From: Ignavibacteria bacterium
Lineage (GTDB): Bacteria; Bacteroidota; Ignavibacteria; Kapaibacteriales; UBA2268
NCBI GenBank assembly: GCA_026416955.1
Contig: JAOAEE010000013.1
Location: 62,001 to 126,000 of the forward strand
Reading direction: 5' to 3'
Length of the DNA stretch: 64,000 nucleotides
Below, one piece after another: positions 13,139 to 41,260 of this stretch (position 1 is its first letter; each line of letters starts with the position of its first letter). The translations under genes were made by a program, and so were the position numbers. The notes below the pieces were generated by a model. That model was not told the origin of the DNA. It saw only the letters and a program-made list of their open reading frames with translations, and did no database searches.

Positions 13139-15256
13139 TTATACGGATACGGTCGCAACAATATCAATTTCTGTTTCTGGAGGCAACTCCGTATAACTTA
13201 TCACACTTATCATTGGGAATTGGGTTCGTACCATCCTATAAAAATATGGCCTAATCTGTGCTGAACATATAACCAAAGGCAAGTATCCCATCATTGTAAT
13301 TTCATCAATTGCTTTTGACAAGGATTCTTGTATCCTTTTTATTGTGTCAACAGAAAGACCAAGTGTCTGCATAGTTGATGCTTGGGTGTTTGTTTGCAAT
13401 ACATTTGAAATCATTTGCTCAATTTCTGGACTTAAAGAAATGCAATGAATAACTCCGTTTTGGTCTTGGTATAACCTTTTGATTGTCTCAGAAAGATTGT
13501 GACGAACATATTCGGTCAATACATCAACATTTTTAGTCACCTTATAATATTCCAACAACGATTCCAAAATCAATGGTAAATCTTTTATAGGGATACCCTC
13601 TTTCAAAAGATTTTGCAACACCTTTTGTATAATCGATAAAGGTAAATTTTCGGGGGTTATTTCCTCGACCAATGCCGGATAATCCTGTTGGAGATTTTCC
13701 ACCAATCTCTTTACTTCTTGACGTGTCAGTAGCTTATCGGCATTTCTTTTTAAAAGTTCTGTCAAGTGGGTTATTAAAACAGTAGAAGATTCAACAACAG
13801 AATAACCCATAAGTTCGGCATTTTCTCTCTCAGCATATGATATCCAAACGGCGGGAAGTCCAAAAACTGGCTCTGTAACGTGAATACCAGAAATTTCTCC
13901 CATTGCTGTCCCCGGATTCATCGCTAAAAGCATTCCGGGTTGAAGGGTGTTGCGTCCGACTTCGTTTCCACGAATTTTTATCACATATTCTTCTGGTTCC
14001 AAATTTAAATTATCTCTAACTCTTACTGGTGGTAAAATAATTCCTAGCTCAAGAGCAAGTTGCTTACGAACATTCATAATTCTCCGGAAAACGTCTCCAC
14101 CTTGCGTTTCATCAACCAATGGAATTAAGTTGTAACCTAATTCCAATTCAACTGGGTCTACTTTTAATAAATCTTCAACTGGGGCTTCTTCGACCTTTTT
14201 GGGAACTTCCGCCTCGACTAATTCTTGGCGTAACCTTTCCTCTTCCTCCTTTTTCATTTGTCTGTATCTAACATAGGCAAGTGCTCCTGTCAATAAACTC
14301 AACAACAAGAAAGGAATTGTAGGAAAGCCGGGAACAAAGGCCATAACAAACATTGCAAACGAAGCCAAGGAAATAGCAGTAGGCTTACCACCAATCTGTT
14401 TCCCAAGTTCTATGTCTAACTTATCTGCCGATGCAGACCGAGTGACGACAAAACCAGCAGCAACCGAAATCAACAAAGAAGGGATTTGTGAAACTAAACC
14501 ATCGCCAATAGTTAATATTGTATATGTAGAAAGTGCCTCTGTGATTTGCATTCCCCGTTGTGCAATACCAATGGCAATTCCACCAACAATATTAATTCCA
14601 GTAATGATAAGTCCAGCAATCGCATCACCACGAATGAACTTCGCCGCACCATCCATAGCACCGTAAAAATCAGCCTCTTTTGTTAAGTTCTGTCTTCGTA
14701 TCCTTGCTTCTTTTTCGTCAATATAACCAGCATTCAAATCTGCGTCTATGCTCATTTGTTTTCCGGGCAATGCGTCTAATGTAAAGCGAGCAGCTACTTC
14801 TGCTATACGGGAGGAACCTTTTATGATAACTATAAAGTTAATTACCATTAGGATGATAAAAATTATTAAACCAACTATGTAGTTACCTCGGATAACAAAA
14901 GTTCCAAAAGACTGAATAATTTCCCCAGCGTATGCTTCTGTAAGAATTAATCTCGTGGTAGCAACATTCAATCCTAATCGAAAAAGAGTTGTAACAAGCA
15001 AAACTGTTGGAAAAGCAGAAAATTCCAGTGGATTTCTTAAATATAAAGAAACTAAAAGAATTAGGACTGCAAGGGATAAATTCATTGCAATTAGCAAGTC
15101 CATTAATATTGGAGGAAGGGGAAGGATAAGCAAACTAATTATTACAAGAATAGCTAGGGCAAGTAAAATATCTTTATTTTGCAAAATGTAAATTATTGCC
15201 CTTCCAACAATATTATTCCCAATGTTTCTCCTTACAAAATCCTCGACTTTACTCAT
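13139..15256 (-). CDS. flhA: Flagellar biosynthesis export protein FlhA
   Basis: A 705-residue core membrane protein of the flagellar type III export apparatus. The N-terminal half carries about eight membrane helices (residues 25-330) and the family signature region (FPTVLLVTTLFRLGLNVATTR, then DALPGKQMSIDADLNAG). The C-terminal half is the large cytosolic ring domain (AVWISYAERENAELMGYSV, VVESSTVLITHL). It starts 5 bases after flhB, completing a fliP-fliQ-fliR-flhB-flhA operon. Flagellar rather than injectisome assignment rests on the gene order, sequence character and the presence of FlbD elsewhere in the window. Confidence 0.95.
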   Translation of the reverse strand: MSKVEDFVRRNIGNNIVGRAIIYILQNKDILLALAILVIISLLILPLPPILMDLLIAMNLSLAVLILLVSLYLRNPLEFSAFPTVLLVTTLFRLGLNVATTRLILTEAYAGEIIQSFGTFVIRGNYIVGLIIFIILMVINFIVIIKGSSRIAEVAARFTLDALPGKQMSIDADLNAGYIDEKEARIRRQNLTKEADFYGAMDGAAKFIRGDAIAGLIITGINIVGGIAIGIAQRGMQITEALSTYTILTIGDGLVSQIPSLLISVAAGFVVTRSASADKLDIELGKQIGGKPTAISLASFAMFVMAFVPGFPTIPFLLLSLLTGALAYVRYRQMKKEEEERLRQELVEAEVPKKVEEAPVEDLLKVDPVELELGYNLIPLVDETQGGDVFRRIMNVRKQLALELGIILPPVRVRDNLNLEPEEYVIKIRGNEVGRNTLQPGMLLAMNPGTAMGEISGIHVTEPVFGLPAVWISYAERENAELMGYSVVESSTVLITHLTELLKRNADKLLTRQEVKRLVENLQQDYPALVEEITPENLPLSIIQKVLQNLLKEGIPIKDLPLILESLLEYYKVTKNVDVLTEYVRHNLSETIKRLYQDQNGVIHCISLSPEIEQMISNVLQTNTQASTMQTLGLSVDTIKRIQESLSKAIDEITMMGYLPLVICSAQIRPYFYRMVRTQFPMISVISYTELPPETEIDIVATVSV

Positions 15257-15261
15257 ATCAT

Positions 15262-16356
15262 CTATGCATTGCTTGTCTTAGTTTCTTTTAAATAGTAAAC
15301 AAATGCAAGAACTTGTGCTACAGCTTTAAAAAGGAATTCCGGAATTTCTTCATCAATATCGACAGAATAATACAATGCTTGTGCAAGTGGTGGTTCTTCT
15401 ACAACTGGTATTCCATTTTCTTCGGCAATTTCCCTAATCTTCAAGGCAAGAAAATCGACACCTTTTGCAACAACAACTGGTGCATTCATTTTATAAGGTT
15501 TATATTCCAGAGCAACAGCAAAGTGGGTCGGGTTTGCAACAACCACATCTGCCCTTTTTTGTAGATTTTTCAGTATTATCTTTCGTACCCTTTGTCTCAT
15601 CAAACCTCGAATTCTAGACTTCACCATTGGGTCGCCTTCCGATTGCCTTCCCTCCTCTTTGACTTCTTCTTTTGTCATCTTCAGATCTTCTTTGTATCTG
15701 TATTTTTGGTACAAAAAGTCGGCAGCAGCAATTAATACATAGATTGCGCCCACTTTAGCAATCAACTCAAAAGTAACAGTAAACATTATTTGTGGTATTT
15801 CCCATATTGGCTTTTCAACCAAACTCAAATCCCAAATGATATACTTTTTTAGAACAGAATACACAACCCAACCCAAGATTATCAGTTTTATCAAACTTTT
15901 GACCAACTCGAAATATGCACGCCCAGAAAAGAAAATTCTCTTTATTCCTCCTAATAGATTAAAAAGAGTTCTAAAATTCAAACCTTTAGTAAATTTTTTA
16001 GTAGCAAGATGAAAACCTACTTGAGAAATTTCTGATACCAATACAATAAAATATATTAAGCCAAGCAATGGCAATATCGTTTGGGCAAGGAAGAAAAGAG
16101 AATTCAAGAAAATCTTGATTACTTCTTTGTCGGTAATATTTGTAAAAAAAGAAGAAGATATTGATTGTTGAAAATAACCTTGAAGATTTTTAACTAAAAC
16201 ATTAATAAACAATAAAGTAATAAACCCTCCGATGAAAATCATCACAGCAGTCGTAACATCAATACTCTTTGCAACTTGACCCCTTTGTCTTGCTTCGCTT
16301 AACCTTCGCGGGGTCGCTGGTTCTGTTTTCTCCCTTCCTTCTGGTGTCTCTGCCAT
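15262..16356 (-). CDS. flhB: Flagellar export switch protein FlhB
   Basis: A 364-residue substrate-specificity switch of the flagellar export gate. It begins with the characteristic polar stretch (EGREKTEPATPRRLSEARQRGQV). Four hydrophobic segments follow between about residues 30 and 215. The autocleavage site NPTH lies at about residue 275 in VVANPTHFAVALEY, within the cytosolic domain. All features of an active FlhB are present and the length is normal. It is flanked at 5-6 base spacing by fliR upstream and flhA downstream. Confidence 0.96.
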   Translation of the reverse strand: MAETPEGREKTEPATPRRLSEARQRGQVAKSIDVTTAVMIFIGGFITLLFINVLVKNLQGYFQQSISSSFFTNITDKEVIKIFLNSLFFLAQTILPLLGLIYFIVLVSEISQVGFHLATKKFTKGLNFRTLFNLLGGIKRIFFSGRAYFELVKSLIKLIILGWVVYSVLKKYIIWDLSLVEKPIWEIPQIMFTVTFELIAKVGAIYVLIAAADFLYQKYRYKEDLKMTKEEVKEEGRQSEGDPMVKSRIRGLMRQRVRKIILKNLQKRADVVVANPTHFAVALEYKPYKMNAPVVVAKGVDFLALKIREIAEENGIPVVEEPPLAQALYYSVDIDEEIPEFLFKAVAQVLAFVYYLKETKTSNA

Positions 16357-16362
16357 AACTAA

Positions 16363-17148
16363 TTACGTTATAGATAATATTAAATTAAAGGTTTGTTTTT
16401 GAAAGATTTCGAGAAACTGTTTGGTTGCAAAAACGAAAAAAGAAATACCAAGAAAGAAAACTAAAAGAGCAACTGCAATCTTTATTTGAAAACTAACCAC
16501 AAAAATGTTTGTTTGTGGAGCCATCCGTGCTAACATTGCAAGTGAAACATTTACCAAAAAAGTAGAAACTATGACTGGTGCAGCGATCTTGAGTGCAATG
16601 ATTGTTGAAATGGTTAAGAACTTACCAAGCTCACTCATTGTTGTTAATGTAAGATTTCCAGAGCCAATTGGAATTTTTGCGTAACTTAAATACAAGGCTT
16701 CGAAAATTTGATGGTGACCGTTCACAAAAAGAAAAAGCATAAGAGCAACCAACTCCAAAAATTGACCAAAAAGAGAAGGCGAGGATTCTTGAAAAGCCAA
16801 AAGGGTTGCAGCTTGGAATCCAAGTTCGAAATCTATTATTCCACCTCCAAATCTTAAGCCCCAGAATACAAGATTGAAAACGAAACCAATAACTAAACCA
16901 ACTAAAATTTCACGGCTGACAACTATCGCAAGCGTTATTAATTCAAAATCTAAATTAACTTTTATATTCAACGTAATAGTCAAAATAATGGAAATCATCA
17001 AAGCAATAAATACTTTCAACATAATTGGTATTACTTGTACCCTAAACAAAGGAGAAAGAATAAAAACCCCAGATATTCTTGCAAATACAAGCAATACAAT
17101 AATCCATTTTTCTATAAACAAGCCTATAATTCCTTCAGTAAGTTCCAT
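16363..17148 (-). CDS. fliR: Flagellar export gate protein FliR
   Basis: A 261-residue, very hydrophobic protein with about six predicted membrane helices. The FliR-like core is visible in VVSREILVGLVIGFVFNLVFWGLRFGGGIIDFELGF. The segment LVNVSLAMLARMAPQTNIFVVSFQIKI matches the conserved C-terminal part of the family. With FliP and FliQ it forms the export gate complex. Its start codon coincides with the end of fliQ at 17148, showing tight coupling. Confidence 0.94.
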   Translation of the reverse strand: MELTEGIIGLFIEKWIIVLLVFARISGVFILSPLFRVQVIPIMLKVFIALMISIILTITLNIKVNLDFELITLAIVVSREILVGLVIGFVFNLVFWGLRFGGGIIDFELGFQAATLLAFQESSPSLFGQFLELVALMLFLFVNGHHQIFEALYLSYAKIPIGSGNLTLTTMSELGKFLTISTIIALKIAAPVIVSTFLVNVSLAMLARMAPQTNIFVVSFQIKIAVALLVFFLGISFFVFATKQFLEIFQKQTFNLILSIT

Positions 17149-17414
17149 TATTTAATGTTTGAAATCATATTGATAATCTCTGTTGTAAAAAACTTCATCT
17201 TTTGAATAATAAATGGAACAAGTAGAACAATTGTTACAAAAACAGCAACTATCTTTGGCACGAAGGTTAAAGTTTGTTCAGATATGGTAGTTGCCGCTTG
17301 AAAAATTGAAATAAGTAACCCAACCACAAGTGAGACTAAAAGAATAGGCCCGCTTATTAGTAAAACATAATAAAAAGCATCTCGAACAATATTTAAAATC
17401 ATTTGGTCTGTCAT
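17148..17414 (-). CDS. fliQ: Flagellar export gate protein FliQ
   Basis: An 88-residue protein with two membrane helices, the normal FliQ size. Conserved sequence such as LLVSLVVGLLISIFQAATTISEQTLTFVPKI identifies the family. It assembles with FliP and FliR in the export gate. It lies 7 bases after fliP and touches fliR. Confidence 0.95.
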   Translation of the reverse strand: MTDQMILNIVRDAFYYVLLISGPILLVSLVVGLLISIFQAATTISEQTLTFVPKIVAVFVTIVLLVPFIIQKMKFFTTEIINMISNIK

Positions 17415-17421
17415 AAACCAC

Positions 17422-18219
17422 CTAACTTGTCATTAATCCTTTTAATAATGAATCTATAACCAAATACCAACCATCAACAAGAACAAACAGAAGAATTTTT
17501 AAAGGCAAAGATATTAATTGTGGAGGCAACAAAAACATACCCAAAGACATCAGCACACTCGCAATTATCATATCGAGAACTAAAAAAGGAACAAATAGTA
17601 AGAACCCAATTTGAAAAGCAATTCGCAGCTCACTCAGAGTATATGCTGGTATTATGGTCCAAATTGATAGTTCCGAAGGGTCTTTTGGTCTTTCCTTACC
17701 CGACAATTTTAGAAAAAGTGCTATATCCTCTTGGCGAGTATATTTCAACATAAATTCCTTGAAAGGATTGACTATATTATCTAATGCTTGCTGTTGGCTG
17801 ATTTCCTCGCGAAGGTACGGTTGAAGTCCTTCCCGATTTGCTCTATCCAAAACAGGTTGCATCACAAAAAAGGTCAAAAACAATGCAAGACTTACTAACA
17901 ATTGGTTTGGTGGCTGAGTTTGAGTTGCTAATGCTTGACGTAAAAAATGAAGGACTACAATTATTCTTGTAAAACAAGTCATCATAATAAGAATGGAAGG
18001 AGCAAGCGTCAGAACGGTCATTAAAAGCAGTATTTGAATGCCTATCGATAGGTCATTCTTATTCTCCGAATTGCCAATAGTTAAGGTTACTTGCGGAAAT
18101 TGCAATCTGTTACCAGTAGGATTTTGCACAGTTGGTTGCGAATAACAAACTTGATTGAGGGCAACCAACAAAAGGGAAACAAAAAATATCCTCTCTATTT
18201 GTTTAATTATCTTTTTCAA
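17422..18219 (-). CDS. fliP: Flagellar export gate protein FliP
   Basis: A 265-residue protein with a cleavable signal peptide (FFVSLLLVALNQVCYSQ), which is usual in FliP. Family motifs include MTCFTRIIVVLHFLRQALATQTQPPNQ near residues 80-105 and the C-terminal PAYTLSELRIAFQIGFLLFVPFLVLDMI. It is the first gene of the five-gene export operon, with a 165-base upstream gap that presumably holds the promoter. No chemotaxis, motor or filament gene is adjacent, so the rest of the flagellar regulon must lie elsewhere. Confidence 0.96.
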   Translation of the reverse strand: MKKIIKQIERIFFVSLLLVALNQVCYSQPTVQNPTGNRLQFPQVTLTIGNSENKNDLSIGIQILLLMTVLTLAPSILIMMTCFTRIIVVLHFLRQALATQTQPPNQLLVSLALFLTFFVMQPVLDRANREGLQPYLREEISQQQALDNIVNPFKEFMLKYTRQEDIALFLKLSGKERPKDPSELSIWTIIPAYTLSELRIAFQIGFLLFVPFLVLDMIIASVLMSLGMFLLPPQLISLPLKILLFVLVDGWYLVIDSLLKGLMTS

Positions 18220-29515: not shown

Positions 29516-30523
29516 ATGGAGCAGTTCAATATACTAATAGTTGAAGATGATTTTGCTGCACTCCAAGTACTTAAAAGAGTACTTGAAAAAGAAAACTACA
29601 TAACAATTCCTGTTGACAATGTTGAAGATGCATTTTCAATATTAAAAAGAGAAAAAATAGACCTTATTGTTAGCGATTGGATGATGCCAAATATTGATGG
29701 AATAGAATTTCTTTTTCGTCTAAAAGCAAATTTTTCAGACCCACCACCAGTTATCATTGTTACTGCTTTAACCTCGGATATGGCTAAAGAGTATGCTCTT
29801 CGCTCTGGTGCTGCCGAATTTATCGAAAAACCAATTAACATTCCAAGCTTCATCCAGTCCATAAAGAAAATTCTTGAAACTCAAAAGTCTAAAAATTTGG
29901 GTTTTGTCCAAACTTCAACTTCTTTTCCCCCTTTTATACCAATTGCTTTTTTGTCGGGCAACGGAGGTGTAAATCCTTTACTCGAGATACTTACATCACT
30001 GAAAAACATCAAAGAAAAGATTGTCTATACAATAATCCAACAAGGTAATAAATTTCTTGTAGACTCTCTTATTACAAAAATTAAGGAAAAATGTAGTAAA
30101 GAAGCAATTATTCCACAAAATTTAATTTATCCAAAAGAAAATAATGTTTATATTGCGCCACACGATTATCATCTCTCATTCACACAAAATTATGAATTAT
30201 TGATTGACAAAGGTCCAAAGGAAAATTACCAAAGACCTTCTGCTGAACCTCTTTTTAGAACTATGGCAAATTATTTTGGAAATTTCTCAATAGTAGTTAT
30301 TCTTTCGGGCTTGGGTGCTGATGGCATACAAGGTGCTATGAAGATAAAATCCAATGGGGGGCACATAATCTGCCAAGAACCATCAAGTGCAATCGCTCCA
30401 ACTTTACCGCAGTCATATATCAACTCTTCTATCGAACCAATAGTATTAATTCCTGAAAAAATCCCAAAAGAAATTGAGAAGATTGTCAATGAATTAAGTT
30501 GTATAAAAATGAAAAAACAATAG
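29516..30523 (+). CDS. Response regulator with catalytically degenerate CheB-like domain
   Basis: A 335-residue protein with a receiver at 1-125 and a CheB methylesterase-like domain at about 140-330. The receiver looks functional (VEDDFAA, phospho-Asp in VSDWMMPNIDG, Lys in EKPI). The C-terminal domain keeps the CheB scaffold: YIAPHDYHLSF, RPSAEPLFRTMA and LSGLGADGIQGAMKIKSNGG with the third triad residue, Asp. In contrast the GASTGG serine aligns with Gly in FLSGNGGVNP, and the QHMP histidine is Gln in IIQQGN. Esterase activity is thus unlikely; it may bind receptors or another target as a pseudoenzyme. It sits downstream of the TonB receptor, not next to chemotaxis genes. Confidence 0.85.
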   Translation: MEQFNILIVEDDFAALQVLKRVLEKENYITIPVDNVEDAFSILKREKIDLIVSDWMMPNIDGIEFLFRLKANFSDPPPVIIVTALTSDMAKEYALRSGAAEFIEKPINIPSFIQSIKKILETQKSKNLGFVQTSTSFPPFIPIAFLSGNGGVNPLLEILTSLKNIKEKIVYTIIQQGNKFLVDSLITKIKEKCSKEAIIPQNLIYPKENNVYIAPHDYHLSFTQNYELLIDKGPKENYQRPSAEPLFRTMANYFGNFSIVVILSGLGADGIQGAMKIKSNGGHIICQEPSSAIAPTLPQSYINSSIEPIVLIPEKIPKEIEKIVNELSCIKMKKQ

Positions 30524-31500: not shown

Positions 31501-33663
31501 TTAATTTTTGGTTGTATTTTCTATATACTTAATATTAAGTATCTGCACAGAGGTAATTATTTCATTTTCAATTTTTTCGATTTCATCTAAAAGTTCCGAA
31601 AGCTCGATTTCGAATTGTTTCAATGTACTCTTATATTCATTTAAACATTCTTTTAGTTCCGATAATTTCTCTTCCTGTTGTTGAATAAAGTCCTCAGAGC
31701 GTTGCATTGCTTGTTTCTTTTCTTTAGAGGAAAAAAAGTCTATCAACAAAAAAATCATAATACCAAAAATAAGTAGGGAAATTATTTTCAATGCAGTTCC
31801 AAGTCCCCTAATGGATTCAATATTTATTGTTTCGTTAAAAATGTAAAAAATGTTGTTACCAGCAAGAAAGAGAAGAATAGAGAATAAGGTCAGAAATAAA
31901 AATGGAAACCAAATGTGTTTCGGGTGGGAGGTGAATTTTTTTGAATTTAAATCAATTAAATAATTTTCGTTTGCTACAATACTCTTTTGCAATTCTTGTA
32001 TTTCAACTTTGATTTTAGATTTAATAATTTGAATTTTTTGTATCTTTTTATTGATAATTTCTTTATTTTCTTTCAATTTTTCAACTTTTTTCGATAAACT
32101 ATCTAATGTTTTTCTTACTATCCCAGAAATAATATCTAATTTTTCATTATACCTAAAGTTATCAACCAATTTATTAAAATTTAACAACATCTCTCTGGTA
32201 TCATCTGGTAAACTATAAGTTAAATTTGATTTGATAAATAAATTCTGATTACTTTTTACAAACTGCTCGACGGTTTTATAATCTTCTTGAAATATTGCTT
32301 GGAGTGTTGCTCCTAAATCAAACTCCTTGAAGTATGCAATATTTCTTAAAACTTTTCTTTCTTCTGGGTTAAATTTTCTTAATGGTTCAAAAAATTGCAT
32401 AAACTTGGAGTAAAAAGTAGAAAAATCTTTAAACTTATCTTCTTCAAAAAATTGAAGGTAATTATAAATGAAAAATTTATAAGTGGCTTTCACTTCAAAG
32501 AAGCCCATTGTATCGGAAATTTTCCGAGTTAGCTCTGTTTCATTGCATAAATACTTAAAAATCTTACCATAAAAAGGGAAATTTTCTGGGAGACACCGAA
32601 TAGCTTCTTCTGGAAAATAATCGAATAAACTCAAAAGTTTAATTGTATCGTAAAGTTTTGAATTAATTCTCTCGAAAATTTTTTGGGCAATAATATTGAA
32701 ATATTCTTTTTTCGTTTTGTCCTCAATGTTACCGTCGAACTTTTCAGCTAACAATTCCAATGCAAAAGGTATACCAAAAGTCATAGAATAAATTTCTCGG
32801 TTTTCCTTATTGATGGTATGTTTTCCAAGGAAGCTAGAAATCTCCTCCTCGTTCAAAGGGCTAACAACAAGTTCTTTAACTTTATCTTCAGAAACTGTAT
32901 TGAAAATCTTTTTGCAAGTTAATTCATACCTGGTTGCTAATAAAATCTTAAACTCAATAAAATCCGAAACTTTTTTCGTTTTCAAAGAATCAACAACTTC
33001 ATAAGAAATAAAATCATTTAGGGACTTATGTTCAAGATAATCGTACAAATGATTTACTATCCAGTAATCGACAATTCCAGAGCCCAATTCATAATTGTCG
33101 AAAATGAAATATGCTCTTATCTTAGTTTCGATTTCATTTTGTATGTGGACATAAACAAGGAAATGGATTATCGCTTCTGCTAAAACATCAAACAATCTCA
33201 GAAGAACTCTTTTATCAATATTGCGTTCAAAAATGGTATCTATCTTGTCAATAAAATTGGGAAGCAAGGCAAACTGGTTTTGTCCTACAAACTCAGTTTC
33301 AAAATAATCCCTAAAACTTAAAGCATCGAAAAAAAACTGCCCAAGTTCCTGATTCTTGCTTGCTAATTTAGTAATAATTTCATTGTACCGTAAAAGGAAA
33401 AAATTTAATTCTTCGAAAAGGTACTCAATTTTATTAAGTGAAGAATAGCATTTTAGGAAATTATTAATTTGGGAAAAATGGTTGCAACCAAACAAATCGA
33501 AATACAACGTGATTGAATTAATCTCCTTGCTCAGAAAATCATTAATTACCTGCTTTATTAAATATGTTTTTCCAACTCCAAAAGTTCCCTTCAACAAAAT
33601 AAATTCACAATTTGGGTTAGATAATTCACTCTGCAACTGGTTAAGTATGGGTCTATATATCAT
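31501..33663 (-). CDS. Membrane-anchored STAND-like P-loop ATPase with two coiled coils
   Basis: A 720-residue protein. Walker A is GTFGVGKTYL near residue 27 and a Walker B-like IFDNYELGSG follows near 185-195. A sensor-like LLATRYELT lies near 240 and helical winged or TPR-like sequence at about 260-500, the layout of AAA/STAND switch ATPases. Residues about 510-575 are a coiled coil (KKVEKLKENKEIINKKIQKI). Two TM helices at about 582-645 follow, then a second coiled coil (about 655-710, rich in Glu/Leu). No nuclease, TIR or protease effector domain is visible. It starts 10 bases after the RsbW-like gene and ends a six-gene operon. The family is not recognised. Confidence 0.72.
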   Translation of the reverse strand: MIYRPILNQLQSELSNPNCEFILLKGTFGVGKTYLIKQVINDFLSKEINSITLYFDLFGCNHFSQINNFLKCYSSLNKIEYLFEELNFFLLRYNEIITKLASKNQELGQFFFDALSFRDYFETEFVGQNQFALLPNFIDKIDTIFERNIDKRVLLRLFDVLAEAIIHFLVYVHIQNEIETKIRAYFIFDNYELGSGIVDYWIVNHLYDYLEHKSLNDFISYEVVDSLKTKKVSDFIEFKILLATRYELTCKKIFNTVSEDKVKELVVSPLNEEEISSFLGKHTINKENREIYSMTFGIPFALELLAEKFDGNIEDKTKKEYFNIIAQKIFERINSKLYDTIKLLSLFDYFPEEAIRCLPENFPFYGKIFKYLCNETELTRKISDTMGFFEVKATYKFFIYNYLQFFEEDKFKDFSTFYSKFMQFFEPLRKFNPEERKVLRNIAYFKEFDLGATLQAIFQEDYKTVEQFVKSNQNLFIKSNLTYSLPDDTREMLLNFNKLVDNFRYNEKLDIISGIVRKTLDSLSKKVEKLKENKEIINKKIQKIQIIKSKIKVEIQELQKSIVANENYLIDLNSKKFTSHPKHIWFPFLFLTLFSILLFLAGNNIFYIFNETINIESIRGLGTALKIISLLIFGIMIFLLIDFFSSKEKKQAMQRSEDFIQQQEEKLSELKECLNEYKSTLKQFEIELSELLDEIEKIENEIITSVQILNIKYIENTTKN

Positions 33664-33673
33664 ATGTAGTGAA

Positions 33674-34093
33674 TTATATTTTGAATTCCATCTTTACAAC
33701 AGTGCCGGATTTACCGGTAACAATAGAAGTTGAGTCGGAAAGTTCCTTGATAATAAAAATCCCCCTACCTCTTTCTTTCAAAATATTTTCGGGAGTGCGT
33801 GGGTCTTGCAATGTTGATGGGTCGAATCCTTCTCCCTCGTCTTCAACAAGAATTTGAATAGTTTTATTTTCTGCAATAATTTTAACTGTCACCTTTTTTT
33901 GGGGGTCGTTTTTGTTCCCGTGTTGAATTGCATTGATAACTGCTTCGGTTGTAGCAACAAGAATATTATGGAATTTGTCTTTTCCAAATGGAAATTTAAG
34001 TTGAATTGAGGTTAAGATTTCTTCCAATTCCGATATTAATTTTCTATCCGATGTAAATTCCCTTATTATTTCTATTTTTTCTTTTTTCTTCAT
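33674..34093 (-). CDS. RsbW/SpoIIAB-like anti-sigma factor or serine kinase ATPase
   Basis: A 139-residue GHKL ATPase domain standing alone. The N-box is NILVATTEAVINAIQHGN, G1 is VEDEGEGFDP and G2 is ERGRGIFIIKEL. Such proteins bind sigma factors or phosphorylate anti-sigma-factor antagonists (STAS proteins) in partner-switching modules. No STAS or PP2C gene is adjacent, so the partner is unknown. The gene abuts the barrel-protein stop codon with no gap and lies 10 bases before the STAND-like ATPase gene. Confidence 0.87.
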   Translation of the reverse strand: MKKKEKIEIIREFTSDRKLISELEEILTSIQLKFPFGKDKFHNILVATTEAVINAIQHGNKNDPQKKVTVKIIAENKTIQILVEDEGEGFDPSTLQDPRTPENILKERGRGIFIIKELSDSTSIVTGKSGTVVKMEFKI

Positions 34094-35995
34094 TTACAAA
34101 GCAACCTTTGTAGTTAAAATCAAGTTTGGATTTTCGCCCGCAATTTTATAATTCCAAAATTTTAATTCATACCAACCTTGCAAAAATATTACTTTATCTT
34201 TTCCTAAAAAAACCTTTATTTCAGTTTCTGGAGAAAATGAATAATAAGAATATTCCTCGTGAAAACTCGACTTGCCCAGTGGTACTTGCTTAATGTTGTA
34301 AATTCTTGCTCCAAAACCAAATTGCAACTTCGGTTTAGTCGAAACGTAAAGGAGTGCCCGCATAAAAAACTCTTTAATACCCAGTTCTTTTGTCATTGAA
34401 AAAGTATTCCAAAAAAGTTTCCCTCGTTCAGAAAATTTATAAACTAAAATACTTGAAAGCATAAAAATGTTGGAAAAGAATAATTCAAGGGAATCGCGAT
34501 AAACAAATTGGCGAAAGGCAAAACTTTTCGTACTATTTGAAGCAACTTCAAAATCATAAACCAAATAGTTTGAATAAATTTCAAGGTTAGGCTTCCATAG
34601 AAAAAATTCAGTATTATACTGTGAACTTGCTGTTAATTTGATTATCCTATTCCAATTATTCAAAGAACTTTTTGTCGACTTTAAAAAAACAAGGTGGTTA
34701 AGTTGAATATCAAAAGATATAGAAAGTGTATAATATTCAGAAAACTTTTGTATAGTAGACAATGTTGTTAAAAATGAAAACTCGTCCCTATCATCATCAT
34801 TTAATTGTGATGGTGTATCATAACGAAGAATACTAAGGTTACCGTTAAGAAAGGTTAGATTATTTTTACTTGGTCTAAAAACGAAATTGTAAAATAATCT
34901 CAATCTATTTTGAAAATTATTCTTTTGTAATTCAGTAGAAGCCAATTGACTAAAAGTTTGATTATCTATTTCATACTTTTTGTCGATAGTATTTTCCTCG
35001 TTTCGTAAATAATAATTTAGCCCAAAGCGGGGTGAAAAATACTTATTCTCCGCGAAAAGTTCAATATTAAATTCAGTAGATTGCTCTAATAATGTTCTTT
35101 CTATTGCTGAATATTGATTCGTAGGGTCAAACAAATTATAATAGCGATTAATTGAAAAAAGGTTCAATTGTCCAGTGAAATTAACATAGGTTTTTCCAAA
35201 AAGATTATAGCTCAAACCAAATGTCGGAAATAATCTATTTTCCTTCCTTGTTTCGAAAAAATTGTCAAGATAGATTGGATACACTATATAATCACGTCGA
35301 AGATTACTATAGTCAAGCGAAATAAAAAGGGAGTTGTTTTCTTCGAATTGACCGTCAAATTTTAGATTAAAAAAAATATTTGAATTTTTTCTTCCATCTT
35401 TTAAATTAATCTCTTCTAAAAAAAGTTTTGAGTTCAAATTTACATCGATAATATTAAAATTTTCTACATTTGCCCCCAAACTAAGTCTTGGTCCATATTG
35501 TTCAATCGACACTTGCTTGATTTTTTCCATCCCATATGTAAACAAAACTTTCGAAATAGGAGGCAATTTTAGTACCAACCCAACACTCCCATTAATTTTT
35601 TCTGCTTCATATAGTCCGATAGTTTTCGTGTCGGAATTAAATAGATAATTCGACTGTATGCTTAAATCGAGAAAATGAAAAAGACTTTTATCTACTTCGA
35701 GGAACAATTTTTCTTGGTCTTTTTTCGAAATTTCATTTCCTCTGATAATGAAACCTTCGTAATCATTTAGAAATGAAACATTAAAAGAAGAAAATTTTTG
35801 GGCAAAAGATAAGGAACTACTTAGACGATAAATGTTAAATTGTTTGTCGAAAATTTGAGAAATATAGTTTTTCTTTAATGAAGTATCTTGAAAAACGGAT
35901 AGAACTATTTGGGAACGTATTTCGTAGAAAAAAATAAGCAAAAAAGTTGATAAAATACAAAGTCTAAGAGGTCTGTTTTCCTTCGACTTTAGCAT
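34094..35995 (-). CDS. Predicted outer-membrane beta-barrel protein, unknown
   Basis: A 633-residue protein from the ATG at 35995; the track's TTG at 36025 is less likely. A signal peptide (LRLCILSTFLLIFFYEIRSQ) precedes roughly 600 residues of alternating amphipathic strands rich in Phe, Tyr, Asn and Ser. Examples are LFISLDYSNLRRDYIVYPIY and FLQGWYELKFWNYKIAG. There is no TonB plug or Por secretin signature. The best reading is an outer-membrane porin-like barrel of unknown role. It overlaps flbD by 32 bases and is directly followed by the RsbW-like gene. Confidence 0.65.
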   Translation of the reverse strand: MLKSKENRPLRLCILSTFLLIFFYEIRSQIVLSVFQDTSLKKNYISQIFDKQFNIYRLSSSLSFAQKFSSFNVSFLNDYEGFIIRGNEISKKDQEKLFLEVDKSLFHFLDLSIQSNYLFNSDTKTIGLYEAEKINGSVGLVLKLPPISKVLFTYGMEKIKQVSIEQYGPRLSLGANVENFNIIDVNLNSKLFLEEINLKDGRKNSNIFFNLKFDGQFEENNSLFISLDYSNLRRDYIVYPIYLDNFFETRKENRLFPTFGLSYNLFGKTYVNFTGQLNLFSINRYYNLFDPTNQYSAIERTLLEQSTEFNIELFAENKYFSPRFGLNYYLRNEENTIDKKYEIDNQTFSQLASTELQKNNFQNRLRLFYNFVFRPSKNNLTFLNGNLSILRYDTPSQLNDDDRDEFSFLTTLSTIQKFSEYYTLSISFDIQLNHLVFLKSTKSSLNNWNRIIKLTASSQYNTEFFLWKPNLEIYSNYLVYDFEVASNSTKSFAFRQFVYRDSLELFFSNIFMLSSILVYKFSERGKLFWNTFSMTKELGIKEFFMRALLYVSTKPKLQFGFGARIYNIKQVPLGKSSFHEEYSYYSFSPETEIKVFLGKDKVIFLQGWYELKFWNYKIAGENPNLILTTKVAL

Positions 35996-36179
35996 CGATG
36001 TGGTAAACCTTCTTTTTGTATTCAATCACAAGATTTGTTAGTTCTTCGTGAGTTTCCCTAACAAGATATTTCTTACCACTTTTCAAGGAAATTACTGAAT
36101 TTGGCCCAATCTCGATAGTTTCGATTTCTTCTGCATTAATAACTATTTTTTGACCGTCAAGTTTAGTCACGAGTATCAT
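35964..36179 (-). CDS. flbD: FlbD family flagellar protein
   Basis: A 71-residue protein matching the short FlbD family: MILVTKLDGQKIVINAEEIE, then PNSVISLKSGKKYLVRETHEEL and a C-terminal VIEYKKKVYH. FlbD proteins are usually found among flagellar hook/motor genes, and their role is poorly defined. Here it lies between the degenerate receiver protein (ATGA overlap) and the barrel protein (32-base overlap), 18 kb from the flagellar export operon. Confidence 0.85.
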   Translation of the reverse strand: MILVTKLDGQKIVINAEEIETIEIGPNSVISLKSGKKYLVRETHEELTNLVIEYKKKVYHIDAKVEGKQTS

Positions 36180-37387
36180 TGAATTTTAACATATATTTTA
36201 CCAATAATTGGGTCGGTTTTGGCAATTGTTTGTATCCTTTCAACAGATTCTTGGGAAAGTAGTGTACCAGCAACAGCAATTTTTAAACCAGAGTCGGTAA
36301 CTATGTTTCTGGCCAGTGTCATACCTTCCTTCAAATCTTCTATTTCTATTTGTCTTTCCGTTGGTATTTTGAGCATTGTAGCACGGTGTGCAAGATATTG
36401 GTCCAAAAGAACTACTACCCTAAAATCGTAAAGCCTTCGCGATTCGACTTCGAGCATAGAAACGATTTTGTTGGTTTCGTACTTTTTCTGTTGGAAATAG
36501 TCATCGTAATCAATGACTACTCTTAGTATTCGCGAGGCAAGAGGAATATTGCCCTTTTCAAGTTTATCGGGCATCCCACTTCCATCGTAATTTTCGTAAA
36601 TGTGTATTACAACATTGGCAACATCTTCGTAGGAACGAAAGAAAGAAAATAATTCTTTTGCGAATAACGGAATTTTTTCCATTTTTTCATTTTTCAAGTA
36701 ACCATTTTGGGTAGGAATTTCCCCTATATTTCTTTCGGGAAGTTGCAATCGGCCAATAAAACATAACTTAGCAGCATCTTTAATCAAATTTTGTAATTCT
36801 TCATTGTTTGGGTCGTATTCATTGGCTATCCAAAGAGCAATTTCCGTTATCCTACCAATTCTTTCTGCACCATCTGGAATTTTTAAGCATTCGAAAAGGT
36901 ACAAAAGGTCGCGCATTCTTAATTTATCTTTTCTTAACTCCTCGCGTAGTTCATCAATAGTTTTTTTATGATTATGAATTGTTTTATAAAGGTGCATTAT
37001 CCGATAAGCATTTTGAAACTTAGCAATTACCTCATCAATTAAGAAAGGTTTATTTATGAAATCATCTGCACCAACCTGAAGGGCTTTGAAATTAAGTTCA
37101 GCGTTAGAATTAGAAGTGATAAAAATTATGAAATTATTTTTTATGCTTGGATTGTACGACTCTCGAATATTCTTTACTAATTGCTCAGTATGATATTGGT
37201 CTTCGAGATAATTTGCAACTATAACCATTAGGTCTTGATATTTTTGAACCAAATCCCAGCATTCTATTCCATTATCAACAGTAAAAATTGGTGACTTTCT
37301 GAAAATTCTTTCTATAACTTTTTTTAGTGAGTTTTTTGTTGATTCATTTTTTTCAACTATGCAAAATGGAATGAAAAGTTCTTCCAT
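36176..37387 (-). CDS. Degenerate receiver plus HD-GYP-like protein
   Basis: This 403-residue protein has a receiver-like domain (1-125), a coiled-coil linker (about 130-160) and an HD-GYP-like domain (about 165-320), then about 80 residues of unknown fold. The receiver lacks the usual acidic pair (VEKNES) and phospho-Asp (VIVANYLED), though the Lys of NKPF remains. The HD-GYP region keeps the frame of the family (YENYDGSGMPDKLEKGNIPLASRI). The metal-binding HD pair is instead CF (KLCFIG) and the HHE motif is IYE. Both catalysis and phosphorylation look unlikely, so it is probably a binding or scaffold protein. It overlaps the half-ClpB stop (TAATG) and flbD (ATGA). Confidence 0.8.
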   Translation of the reverse strand: MEELFIPFCIVEKNESTKNSLKKVIERIFRKSPIFTVDNGIECWDLVQKYQDLMVIVANYLEDQYHTEQLVKNIRESYNPSIKNNFIIFITSNSNAELNFKALQVGADDFINKPFLIDEVIAKFQNAYRIMHLYKTIHNHKKTIDELREELRKDKLRMRDLLYLFECLKIPDGAERIGRITEIALWIANEYDPNNEELQNLIKDAAKLCFIGRLQLPERNIGEIPTQNGYLKNEKMEKIPLFAKELFSFFRSYEDVANVVIHIYENYDGSGMPDKLEKGNIPLASRILRVVIDYDDYFQQKKYETNKIVSMLEVESRRLYDFRVVVLLDQYLAHRATMLKIPTERQIEIEDLKEGMTLARNIVTDSGLKIAVAGTLLSQESVERIQTIAKTDPIIGKIYVKIQ

Positions 37388-38709
37388 TAAATCTCAACCC
37401 CTTTGCTCTTCAATTCACGCATTAATGCTTCGCGTTCAATTTCGAGTTGGCGAATTTTTCTTTCAATTGTGTCAATTTCCTCTGGCAAAGATTCTATCTC
37501 GAGTTTAATTTTGCTTGCTGCTTCATCTATCAAATCAATTGCTTTATCTGGCAAAAACCTATCGGTAATATATCTATGAGAAAGCTCGGCAGCGGCTACA
37601 ATAGCTGCATCAGAAATTTTTACTCCGTGGTGAACTTCATATTTTTCTTTTAAACCACGAAGAATGGAAATAGTCTCTTCGACTGTTGGTTCATCAACAA
37701 ACACTTTTTGGAATCGTCGCTCTAATGCTGGGTCCTTCTCAATATATTTTTGATACTCATCAAGAGTAGTAGCCCCAATACATCGAAGTTCTCCTCGAGC
37801 AAGAGCAGGTTTAAGAATATTTGCAGCATCCATACTTCCTTGTGCTGCACCAGCTCCAATAAGTGTGTGGATTTCATCAATGAAAAGTATTATTTGGCCA
37901 TCGGAACTGGAAACTTCTTTAATAACTGCTTTCAACCTTTCTTCGAATTGACCTCGGAACTGAGTTCCAGCAACAAGTGCTCCCATATCAAGCATTACAA
38001 CAATTTTGTTCTTTAAATTTTCTGGCACATCACCCGAAACTATCATTTGGGCAATTCCCTCAACTATCGCAGTTTTCCCAACCCCAGGCTCCCCAATTAA
38101 CACTGGATTGTTTTTTGTTCGTCTTGAAAGAACTTGCAAAACCCTCCTAATCTCTTCTTGTCTTCCAATAACGGGGTCGAGTTTACCTTCCCTAACTTCG
38201 TCATTTAATATTCGCCCATATCTCCTTAAAGCCTGGTACTTTTCCTCGGGAGTTTGGTCTGTAACTCTATGTCCTCCACGAATTTCTTTAAGTATTTTCA
38301 AAACATCTTCTTTTGTTACATTAAAACTTTTCAACAAGTCGGCAACATTAGAACGAACGGTTATCAATGAAAGTAGAAGATGCTCGACACTAATGAATTC
38401 ATCGTGCATCTGTTTTGCTTCTTTAAATGCTACGTCAAATACTTCGTTTAAGGAAGGACTAAGATACAGATTGGTACCATATCCAGTAACTTTTGGCAAA
38501 CTTTCAAGAAGTTCATTAACTTTTATTCTAATTCTTGGAATATTAACCTCTAGTTTTTTTAGAATTTCAACAACTATGCCTTCTTCCTCTTGGATAAAAG
38601 CAGCAAAAAGATGAATTGGCTCTAAAGTTTGATGGTTATAGTTTGTGGCAATTTCTTGTGCTGTTTGAATAGCTTCTTGGGACCTTAAAGTAAATTTTTG
38701 TAGGTTCAT
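37387..38709 (-). CDS. Half-length ClpB: N domain plus first AAA+ module only
   Basis: The sequence is strongly ClpB-like. It has a Clp-N repeat domain (residues 1-145), then NBD1 with Walker [10 protein letters not shown], Walker [23 protein letters not shown] sensor and Arg-finger ALERRFQ. It continues into the first turn of the middle domain ([20 protein letters not shown]) and stops at residue 440. A normal ClpB is about 860 residues. The missing middle domain and NBD2 are not in any frame downstream, because an intact regulator gene begins at the stop codon (TAATG). It may remodel specific partners or act as a hexameric adaptor. A full ClpB may exist elsewhere. Confidence 0.88.
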
Positions 38710-38810: not shown

Positions 38811-38839
38811 CTCTGCACAATTTGTTTTTCGAGGGAAAA

Positions 38840-40420
38840 ATGGAAAAAAATAGGGGAAAAATACTTTGGATTGACGATGAAATCGAACTTTTGAAGCCAC
38901 ATCTAATACTACTTAGACAAAAGGGATACGAAGTAGATACTGCAACTAATGGAGAAGATGGTATTGAACTCGTAAAGAAAAATCTTTACGACATTATCTT
39001 TCTCGATGAAATGATGTTAGGTATGAGTGGGCTGGACACACTTGTCGAAATTAAAGACATTAACCCATACTTACCTGTTATCATGGTTACAAAAAACGAA
39101 GCAGAAACTTTAATGGAAGAAGCAATAGGCCGAAAAATAGATGATTACTTGACTAAACCAGTCAATCCAACCCAAATATTAGCAATTTGTAAAAGATATT
39201 TAGAATCGGAGAGAATAAACCAAGAAAAAATTATCCAAAACTTTCTTATCGACACAACAAATATTAGAACAAAACTTAACGAAAATCTTGAATGGGAGGA
39301 TTGGAAAGAAATTTATTTAAAACTTGTATTTTGGTCGTTGGAATTGGACAAGTACCCATCCATAGGTTTTTCGGACTCACTTCGGGATATTTTTCGGGAG
39401 GCAAATACTGTTTTTTCGGATTATATTGAAAGGAATTACAAGGAATTAATAAATACTTCACCAAGCGATAATCGCCCATTATTATCTCCCGAAATTTTCG
39501 AAAAATTTGTAATACCAAACATAAATTCCAAAACCAATCTTTTCTTCTTTGTAATTGATTGCTTACGCTTGGACCAATGGTTAGTTTTTGAAGAAATTCT
39601 TCAACAATTCTATAAAATTCATAAAGAATATTATCTTTCTATTCTTCCAACAGCAACTCCGTATGCAAGAAATTCAATTTTTGCCGGATTGTTTCCCTAC
39701 GATATTCAAAAGTACTACCCACAATTTTGGGTCGGTGAACTAAACACAGAAGACCACAAACAAAATGCATTCGAAAAAGATTTACTTATCGAACAATTGA
39801 CAAGAAAAAAAGTTAAACTCCAAACTCCCTTAACTTATATCAAAATCCACGAGACTGAATTCGGAAAAAAAGTTGAAAGCGAAATACATAAGTATACAAA
39901 AAATCAACTTACAGCAATCGTTGTAAACTCCGTAGATATGATTGCACATTCAAGGTCAGACTTTGCTATTTTGAAGGAAATCGCCCCAAATGAATCAGCA
40001 TACCGTTCGCTGACACGTTCTTGGTTCAGTCATTCAAGCCTTTTGGGAATGCTACAATCTTTATCGCAATATCCAAATGTAAAAATAATTCTTACTACCG
40101 ACCACGGTTCGATAAGATGTATGCGTGGTGTAAAAGTCTTAGGTGATAGAGAAACTTCAACTTCTCTTCGATATAAGTTTGGCAAAAATGTAAAGTGCGA
40201 ACCGCGTTATGCTATGCAGGTTCAAGATTTGACAGAACTAAAACTACCCAAAATATCAATTACAGTTAATAACATAATAGCAAAAGAGGATTATTACTTT
40301 GTTTATCCAACCGACTATCACTATTATCTTCAAAGATATAAAGATAGTTTTCAACACGGTGGTATTTCTTTGGAAGAAATGATTATTCCAATTGTTACTT
40401 TGGAACCGAAAAACACCTAA
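38840..40420 (+). CDS. porX: T9SS regulator PorX: receiver plus PglZ domain
   Basis: The ATG at 38840 with GAGGG five bases upstream gives 526 residues; the track start is a TTG 18 bases earlier. The receiver (1-125) has ILWIDDE, the phospho-Asp in IIFLDEMMLGMSGLD and the Lys in TKPVNP. The remainder is a PglZ alkaline-phosphatase-superfamily domain (FFVIDCLRLDQW, LPTATPYARNSIFAGLFP, VVNSVDMIAHSRSD, LTTDHGS). This matches PorX, which in Porphyromonas works with PorY and the SigP sigma factor to control T9SS genes. It is divergent from the half-ClpB operon. An alternative label would be a PorX paralogue. Confidence 0.9.
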   Translation: MEKNRGKILWIDDEIELLKPHLILLRQKGYEVDTATNGEDGIELVKKNLYDIIFLDEMMLGMSGLDTLVEIKDINPYLPVIMVTKNEAETLMEEAIGRKIDDYLTKPVNPTQILAICKRYLESERINQEKIIQNFLIDTTNIRTKLNENLEWEDWKEIYLKLVFWSLELDKYPSIGFSDSLRDIFREANTVFSDYIERNYKELINTSPSDNRPLLSPEIFEKFVIPNINSKTNLFFFVIDCLRLDQWLVFEEILQQFYKIHKEYYLSILPTATPYARNSIFAGLFPYDIQKYYPQFWVGELNTEDHKQNAFEKDLLIEQLTRKKVKLQTPLTYIKIHETEFGKKVESEIHKYTKNQLTAIVVNSVDMIAHSRSDFAILKEIAPNESAYRSLTRSWFSHSSLLGMLQSLSQYPNVKIILTTDHGSIRCMRGVKVLGDRETSTSLRYKFGKNVKCEPRYAMQVQDLTELKLPKISITVNNIIAKEDYYFVYPTDYHYYLQRYKDSFQHGGISLEEMIIPIVTLEPKNT

Positions 40421-40455: not shown

Positions 40456-41202
<747 letters not shown>

Positions 41203-41260
41203 AAACAATAAATAATAAATTATTTAGTAGAAGTAATAATTATTTCTTTTTTATGACATT

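What the first reader, a model, noticed from the sequence alone, without database searches (positions are those of the whole stretch)
31501..38709. Six-gene coupled cassette of half-ClpB, pseudo-regulator, FlbD, barrel, RsbW-like and membrane STAND-like ATPase
All six genes are on the minus strand. Junctions are TAATG (half-ClpB/regulator), ATGA (regulator/flbD), a 32-base overlap (flbD/barrel), a direct abutment (barrel/RsbW) and 10 bases (RsbW/STAND-like). Such tight coupling suggests a common purpose. Two members look like non-catalytic versions (receiver/HD-GYP-like; ClpB without NBD2), and one is a P-loop ATPase in the membrane. My reading is an envelope- or flagellum-linked signalling or switch complex; I know of no described system with this composition.
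Basis: partly seen in the sequence, partly recalled or inferred. Interest (0 to 1): 0.75.

Follow-up and report, generated by a model that had tools for sequence, protein, structure and literature searches.

The report
Split ClpB gene heading conserved operon
The 'half-ClpB' in this gene cluster is one of two separate genes that together encode the whole ClpB protein-rescue machine, cut at the same loop in a large group of related bacteria, so a machine thought to need one chain per subunit seems to be built from two.

Summary
The six coupled minus-strand genes are real. Gene order is identical in 5/5 genus members and one other genus; shorter versions occur across the family. The main finding is that the 'half-ClpB' is not a degenerate ClpB. 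It is the N-terminal half (N domain, NBD1, middle-domain helix 1) of a ClpB encoded by two genes. The other half (rest of the middle domain plus NBD2, 439 aa, catalytic motifs intact) lies 87 kb away on the same contig, outside the window. Together the halves cover the 853-position ClpB model; neither alone passes NCBI's cut-off. The cut falls at the same residue (E. coli ~432, the middle-domain distal loop) in all sampled families of this order, four other families of the class, and three of another class (probably green sulfur bacteria). Helix 1 stays as conserved as in intact ClpB up to the break, so the halves very probably assemble through the coiled coil. This is inferred, not shown. The regulator is a degenerate receiver/HD-GYP. 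FlbD tracks flagella and sits directly before the barrel, but the barrel is order-wide, including flagellum-less families, so a flagellar reading of the whole cassette fails. I found no description of natural ClpB fission in the papers searched.

The parts
37387..38709 (-). clpB-N: N-terminal half of a split ClpB (440 aa; N domain, NBD1, middle-domain helix 1, stop in the distal loop)
   Evidence: TIGR03346 positions 1-428 of 853; E. coli ClpB 1-433; same 436-507 aa frame in all sampled families of the order
36176..37387 (-). REC + HD-GYP-like regulator (403 aa), degenerate: receiver Asp replaced by Ala in this genus, HD dyad lost in all compared relatives
   Evidence: Pfam; alignment of 30 homologues
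35964..36179 (-). FlbD family protein (71 aa)
   Evidence: PF06289 73.8 bits over cut-off; immediately upstream of the barrel gene in 33 of 41 FlbD-positive genomes
34094..36025 (-). outer-membrane beta-barrel of unknown family (about 633 aa from ATG at 35995; signal peptide read from the sequence); order-wide
   Evidence: no Pfam/NCBIfam/PADLOC family; in 96/100 relatives; long antiparallel strands in a low-confidence model
33674..34093 (-). RsbW/SpoIIAB-like HATPase (139 aa), possible anti-sigma factor or switch kinase
   Evidence: PF13581 90.3 bits; NCBIfam RsbW 50.6 bits, below its cut-off of 145
31501..33663 (-). P-loop NTPase with C-terminal coiled coil and two transmembrane segments (720 aa), fast evolving
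   Evidence: invariant G26, G29, G31, K32, D189, R245 in 9 homologues; NB-ARC just under cut-off
38822..40420 (+). PorX, type IX secretion response regulator (REC + PglZ), divergent neighbour of clpB-N; not part of the operon but neighbourhood conserved
   Evidence: NF052313 675 bits, cut-off 300; divergent next to clpB-N in several genera and in family f2

Best explanation
The first gene of the cassette (clpB-N) encodes the N-terminal half of the ClpB disaggregase, and a second, unlinked gene (clpB-C, G000:C54:11186-12502, about 87 kb away, outside the window) encodes the rest. The gene was cut at the turn between helices 1 and 2 of the middle domain, with essentially nothing lost. Shown from sequence: the split, its exact and conserved position, retention of both ATPase centres, joint presence, and unrelaxed conservation of middle-domain helix 1 up to the break. 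Inferred: the two polypeptides pair through the middle-domain coiled coil and the broken NBD1 lid, and six such pairs form the two-tiered ring that threads aggregated protein with DnaK. Also inferred: breaking the distal loop, which in intact ClpB makes an autoinhibitory contact with NBD2 and is needed for DnaK cooperation, changes how the machine is held back. The other five genes form a conserved module in which FlbD pairs with the barrel (flagellated lineages) and the RsbW-like and STAND-like genes follow. Sharing a transcript with clpB-N is likely from the overlaps, but functional linkage to ClpB is not shown.
For: TIGR03346: clpB-N matches positions 1-428 (681 bits), clpB-C 430-852 (627 bits); cut-off 1232, sum 1308. 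E. coli ClpB 1-433 and 431-850. The own genome's only long homologue (863 aa) is 47% identical and looks like ClpC; no intact ClpB found. In 100 relatives the N-half frame is 436-507 aa in families f1-f10 and the C-half a separate frame of about 440-610 aa; same in f13, f15, f19, f22 and f33, f35, f48 of another class. Junction at the same residue in every split lineage. NBD1 Walker A, Walker B and pore loop present in 37/37; NBD2 Walker A 35, Walker B 36, pore loop and Arg finger 37. Helix 1 conservation 0.83 in split against 0.80 in intact ClpB, tail after the break 0.18. Halves co-occur: 81 both, 7 and 7 one only, 6 neither, Fisher p 0.0015; complete genome G036 lacks both. [quoted passage not shown] distal-loop role (PMC3887210); motif 1 role (PMC4023160).
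Against: No experiment. The halves are in separate operons with no shared CIRCE site. 14 of 101 genomes show only one half, mostly fragmented MAGs, but G046 (99% complete) lacks C and G092 (100%) lacks N. A few halves deviate in NBD2 motifs (G012, G081, G028). Single origin of the split is neither shown nor rejected (AU p 0.114); several intact ClpBs of the class nest among the split ones.
Confidence: 0.86

Rival explanations
1. The N-half is a stand-alone single-ring AAA+ protein recruited to a new envelope or flagellar role with its operon partners; the C-half acts elsewhere or is a relic.
For: clpB-N is translationally coupled to the cassette in this genus and lies within 1.5 kb upstream of flbD and/or the barrel in 25 genomes of the family; the halves are unlinked.
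Against: Middle-domain helix 1 and both catalytic centres are as conserved as in intact ClpB; clpB-N and clpB-C exist outside the cassette in other families and another class; the halves tend to be lost together.
Confidence: 0.08
2. Cassette as an envelope- or flagellum-linked signalling complex, with the RsbW-like protein and pseudo-regulator acting on a membrane NTPase and barrel. Compatible with the split ClpB; it concerns the other five genes.
For: Conserved order; FlbD tracks FlhA (p 1e-4); degenerate receiver/HD-GYP; PorX next door.
Against: The barrel persists in FlhA-lacking families f2 and f7; the regulator is missing from between clpB-N and flbD in G024, G028, G009; clpB-N is in a different place in many genomes with the barrel; no partner tested.
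Confidence: 0.25
3. The truncation is an assembly error, frameshift or pseudogene.
For: The genome is a 78-contig assembly.
Against: Same cut in dozens of independent genomes, including single-contig ones (G001, G045, G231, G267, G275, G284); strong protein conservation (pN 0.06-0.12 at saturated pS).
Confidence: 0.01
4. The two genes give one protein by RNA trans-splicing or split-intein ligation.
For: The break is precise and both halves are conserved.
Against: The halves carry own stop and start codons with variable short tails, no intein sequence, no group II intron or other Rfam family at either gene.
Confidence: 0.01

Closest known systems
ClpB/Hsp104 disaggregase (TIGR03346)
   Same: N domain, NBD1, middle domain and NBD2 all present across the two genes with intact motifs; residue-level alignment to E. 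coli and T. thermophilus ClpB
   Different: encoded by two unlinked genes, cut in the middle-domain distal loop; the conserved loop motif (REKDEAS in intact relatives) is lost at the break
Engineered two-fragment ClpB (Beinker et al. 2005, pmid 16162497; known here only through citations)
   Same: NBD1 and NBD2 not covalently linked, reported to retain chaperone activity
   Different: man-made; PMC2689388 says complex formation needed NBD2 extended to include the last helix of NBD1, so the cut was elsewhere (C-terminal to the middle domain)
Naturally split proteins from gene fission (e.g. split Doa10, PMC3464245)
   Same: two genes encode fragments of one ancestral protein that may reassemble
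   Different: a eukaryotic membrane protein; here a ring ATPase across a large bacterial clade
FlbD flagellar proteins (PF06289)
   Same: passes the family cut-off and follows FlhA occurrence
   Different: paired with a barrel gene that also occurs without flagella

Membership tests
ClpB chaperone (TIGR03346) | single protein above the curated score cut-off (1232 bits) | tested here: not met
   681 and 627 bits separately; sum 1308
ClpB chaperone (TIGR03346) | N domain + NBD1 with Walker A/B, pore loop, Arg fingers | tested here: met
   Clp_N, AAA, AAA_lid_9; motifs
ClpB chaperone (TIGR03346) | ClpB-type middle domain with DnaK-contact tyrosine | tested here: met
   divided between the two polypeptides; RYG retained in clpB-C
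ClpB chaperone (TIGR03346) | NBD2 with Walker A/B, pore loop, Arg finger, sensor 2 | tested here: met
   in clpB-C, outside the window
ClpB chaperone (TIGR03346) | hexameric DnaK-dependent disaggregase activity | not testable with these tools
   needs biochemistry
HD-GYP phosphodiesterase response regulator | receiver Asp and HD/GYP catalytic residues | tested here: not met
   IVANYL in place of a receiver Asp; CFIGR in place of HDIGK; GMP in place of GYP
FlbD (PF06289) | Pfam cut-off and flagellar occurrence | tested here: met
   73.8 bits vs 24.7; 39/41 with FlhA
RsbW anti-sigma B factor | NCBIfam equivalog cut-off; cognate sigma and anti-anti-sigma | tested here: not met
   50.6 bits vs 145; partners not tested; general HATPase_c_2 fold met
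STAND NTPase (NB-ARC/NACHT/nSTAND) | family cut-off for the NTPase domain | tested here: not met
   NB-ARC 21.6 vs 23.5 bits, nSTAND_NTPase5 15.8 vs 34; P-loop itself invariant
PorX (NF052313), neighbour gene | equivalog cut-off | tested here: met
   675 vs 300 bits

The most novel reading that the evidence does not exclude
A clade including green sulfur bacteria and many Ignavibacteria-like lineages runs on a trans-encoded ClpB, in which breaking the middle-domain distal loop replaces or alters the normal autoinhibition and DnaK switch. Activity is then set by the ratio of two independently transcribed subunits, with the N-half tied to an envelope/motility operon and the C-half to an OmpA-domain gene.
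Probability: 0.3. Interest if true: 0.85.

Novelty: new variant of a known kind. Interest (0 to 1): 0.62.

Why it matters
ClpB is a textbook single-chain, two-ring machine, and what the covalent link and middle-domain loop do is argued mainly from mutants. A natural version cut at exactly that loop, kept across many families, lets the question be tested with evolved rather than engineered fragments: is the loop needed for DnaK cooperation, and how are the rings held together? It also means that genome surveys scoring ClpB with full-length models can miss or miscount it here; a 2007 survey listed only one Chlorobi species as containing ClpB (PMC1887533).

Tried and rejected
Insertion of the cassette into clpB as the cause of the split: rejected. 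In f22 the halves are 5.8-7.6 kb apart on one strand, but the genes between are unrelated to the cassette. Co-regulation by CIRCE/HrcA: no site at either half in 37 genomes. Trans-splicing/RNA element: none. Relation to known anti-phage defence: only weak PADLOC hits for the STAND-like protein, none for the barrel. Structure models of the STAND-like protein and the barrel: mean pLDDT 46 and 41, too poor for fold search. Counting fission events: the tree favours several changes (4), but single-clade constraints are not rejected. Most intact class members keep the canonical REKDEAS-type motif, which argues against simple re-fusion; f20, f23, f24 and f29 have short insertions exactly at the junction, unexplained. 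dN/dS: synonymous sites saturated, not usable. Promoter/terminator scan: no more sites than shuffles.

Full report
OBSERVATION. Gene order clpB-N, regulator, flbD, barrel, RsbW-like, STAND-like is identical in all five genus members and in G022 of another genus. G024 shows clpB-N, flbD, barrel, RsbW, STAND without the regulator; G028 and G009 show clpB-N, flbD, barrel, RsbW; G008 shows regulator to STAND without clpB-N. The proteins diverge at different rates: clpB-N 85-93% identity inside the genus, barrel 43-58%, STAND-like 32-45%. A conserved cassette is therefore established.

THE HALF-CLPB. The 440-aa protein has Clp_N, AAA and AAA_lid_9. It aligns with E. coli ClpB residues 1-433 and with positions 1-428 of the 853-position NCBI ClpB model. 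The only long homologue in the genome is 863 aa, 47% identical and ClpC-like in sequence. Searching the genome for the ClpB C-terminal domain gave a 440-aa frame at C54:11183-12505. Its 439-aa protein aligns with E. coli ClpB 431-850 and model positions 430-852. Neither half reaches the ClpB cut-off of 1232 bits, but together they score 1308. So clpB is present in full, cut between model positions 428 and 430, with the halves 87 kb apart and in separate gene contexts.

DISTRIBUTION. In 100 relatives, the N-half frame is 436-507 aa in all ten families of the order wherever it is not cut by a contig end, and a separate C-half frame of the complementary length is found. In the class, families f13, f15, f19 and f22 are also split; the other families sampled have 870-930 aa frames (f17 is undetermined, cut by a contig end). 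In the phylum, f33, f35 and f48 of another class are split and all other families sampled are intact. Genome lengths of G231 (3,293,456), G284 (2,364,842) and G275 (2,289,249) match my recollection of Chloroherpeton thalassium, Pelodictyon luteolum and Chlorobaculum parvum, so f33/f35 are probably green sulfur bacteria; this is memory, not a tool result. I also recall UniProt entries 'ClpB 1' and 'ClpB 2' of about half length for Chlorobium tepidum, so the annotation may have been seen before; I could not check it. Both halves are present in 81 of 101 genomes, one only in 7 and 7, neither in 6 (Fisher p 0.0015; incomplete genomes inflate this).

WHERE THE CUT LIES. In all split lineages the N-half ends 4-16 residues after (Q/R)LEIEREAL, and the C-half starts just before RLxEIEKEL. 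That is the distal loop between middle-domain helices 1 and 2. In intact ClpB/Hsp104 this loop makes an autoinhibitory contact with NBD2 and is needed for DnaK/Hsp70 cooperation (PMC3887210). E432A at this tip is repressed, and deletion of motif 1 (410-455) is hyperactive and toxic (PMC4023160). Catalytic and pore motifs are kept in essentially all 37 pairs. Conservation of helix 1 is 0.83 in split and 0.80 in intact proteins up to the break, then falls to 0.18 in the tail. A lone N-half would have no obvious reason to keep half of a coiled coil; this is the best sequence evidence that the halves still pair. An engineered split of ClpB at another place is reported to retain chaperone activity (Beinker 2005, cited in PMC4239642 and PMC2689388).

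HISTORY. The FastTree tree puts all split ClpBs inside one clade (support 1.0) made of the other class plus most of the own class, with 15 intact sequences nested within. IQ-TREE with a mixture model needs 4 changes, at least 2 forced by well-supported branches. Forcing all split sequences, or those of the own class, into one clade is not rejected (p-AU 0.114 and 0.275). Repeated fission at one permissive loop and a single fission with later replacement both remain open.

THE OTHER GENES. The regulator has lost its receiver Asp in this genus (distant homologues mostly keep it), and the HD dyad throughout the compared relatives. FlbD occurs in 41 of 100 relatives, 39 of them with FlhA, and lies within 220 bases upstream of the barrel in 33. 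The barrel is found in 96 of 100, including f2 and f7 without FlhA. The barrel is thus an order-wide envelope component to which a flagellar accessory gene is attached in motile lineages. clpB-N lies within 1.5 kb upstream of flbD and/or the barrel, on the same strand, in 25 genomes, all in family f1; in 7 of them the regulator lies between. RsbW-like and STAND-like proteins are recognisable only at fold or P-loop level. Their role, probably a signalling switch at the membrane, is inference. PorX is the divergent neighbour of clpB-N, also in family f2.

VERDICT. Observation confirmed, interpretation partly supported. The important discovery is a naturally split ClpB. I rate it a new variant of a known kind, with the split shown and the reassembly inferred.

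Noticed in passing
L100:9328-11223 (-), directly downstream of clpB-C: An OmpA-domain protein follows clpB-C in 11 genomes of six families; so both ClpB halves precede an envelope gene. Function unknown.
   Followed up: partly
window 13139-18219 (-): Flagellar export genes flhA, flhB, fliR, fliP lie in the same window about 13 kb from the cassette, so the genome encodes a flagellar system alongside PorX/T9SS.
   Followed up: partly
L173, L174, L175, L176 (family f22): The two clpB halves lie on one strand 5.8-7.6 kb apart; in L173 the genes between include a lipid-kinase-like protein, a phosphoesterase and sugar enzymes on both strands. Possibly a less rearranged stage of the split.
   Followed up: partly
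intact ClpB of families f20, f23, f24, f29 (L192, L245, L253, L250, L252, L244): Short insertions sit exactly at the position where the gene is cut in split lineages: a permissive site or re-fusion scars.
   Followed up: no
G036 (order, family f2; 100% complete): Lacks both clpB halves (and FlhA), keeping only ClpC: apparent joint loss.
   Followed up: no
G003 contigs C4 and C24 (L038, L039): The whole cassette appears twice, nearly identical: strain duplicate or contamination in that assembly.
   Followed up: no
window 40456-40529 (+) and 40495-41208 (-): tRNA-Ala overlaps the 3' end of the thiamin pyrophosphokinase ORF on the other strand; the ORF's last residues (SGPDEIRTHDL) are antisense tRNA.
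   Followed up: no
window 29516-30523 (+): CheB methylesterase with receiver near the cassette, following a TonB-receptor-like gene.
   Followed up: no
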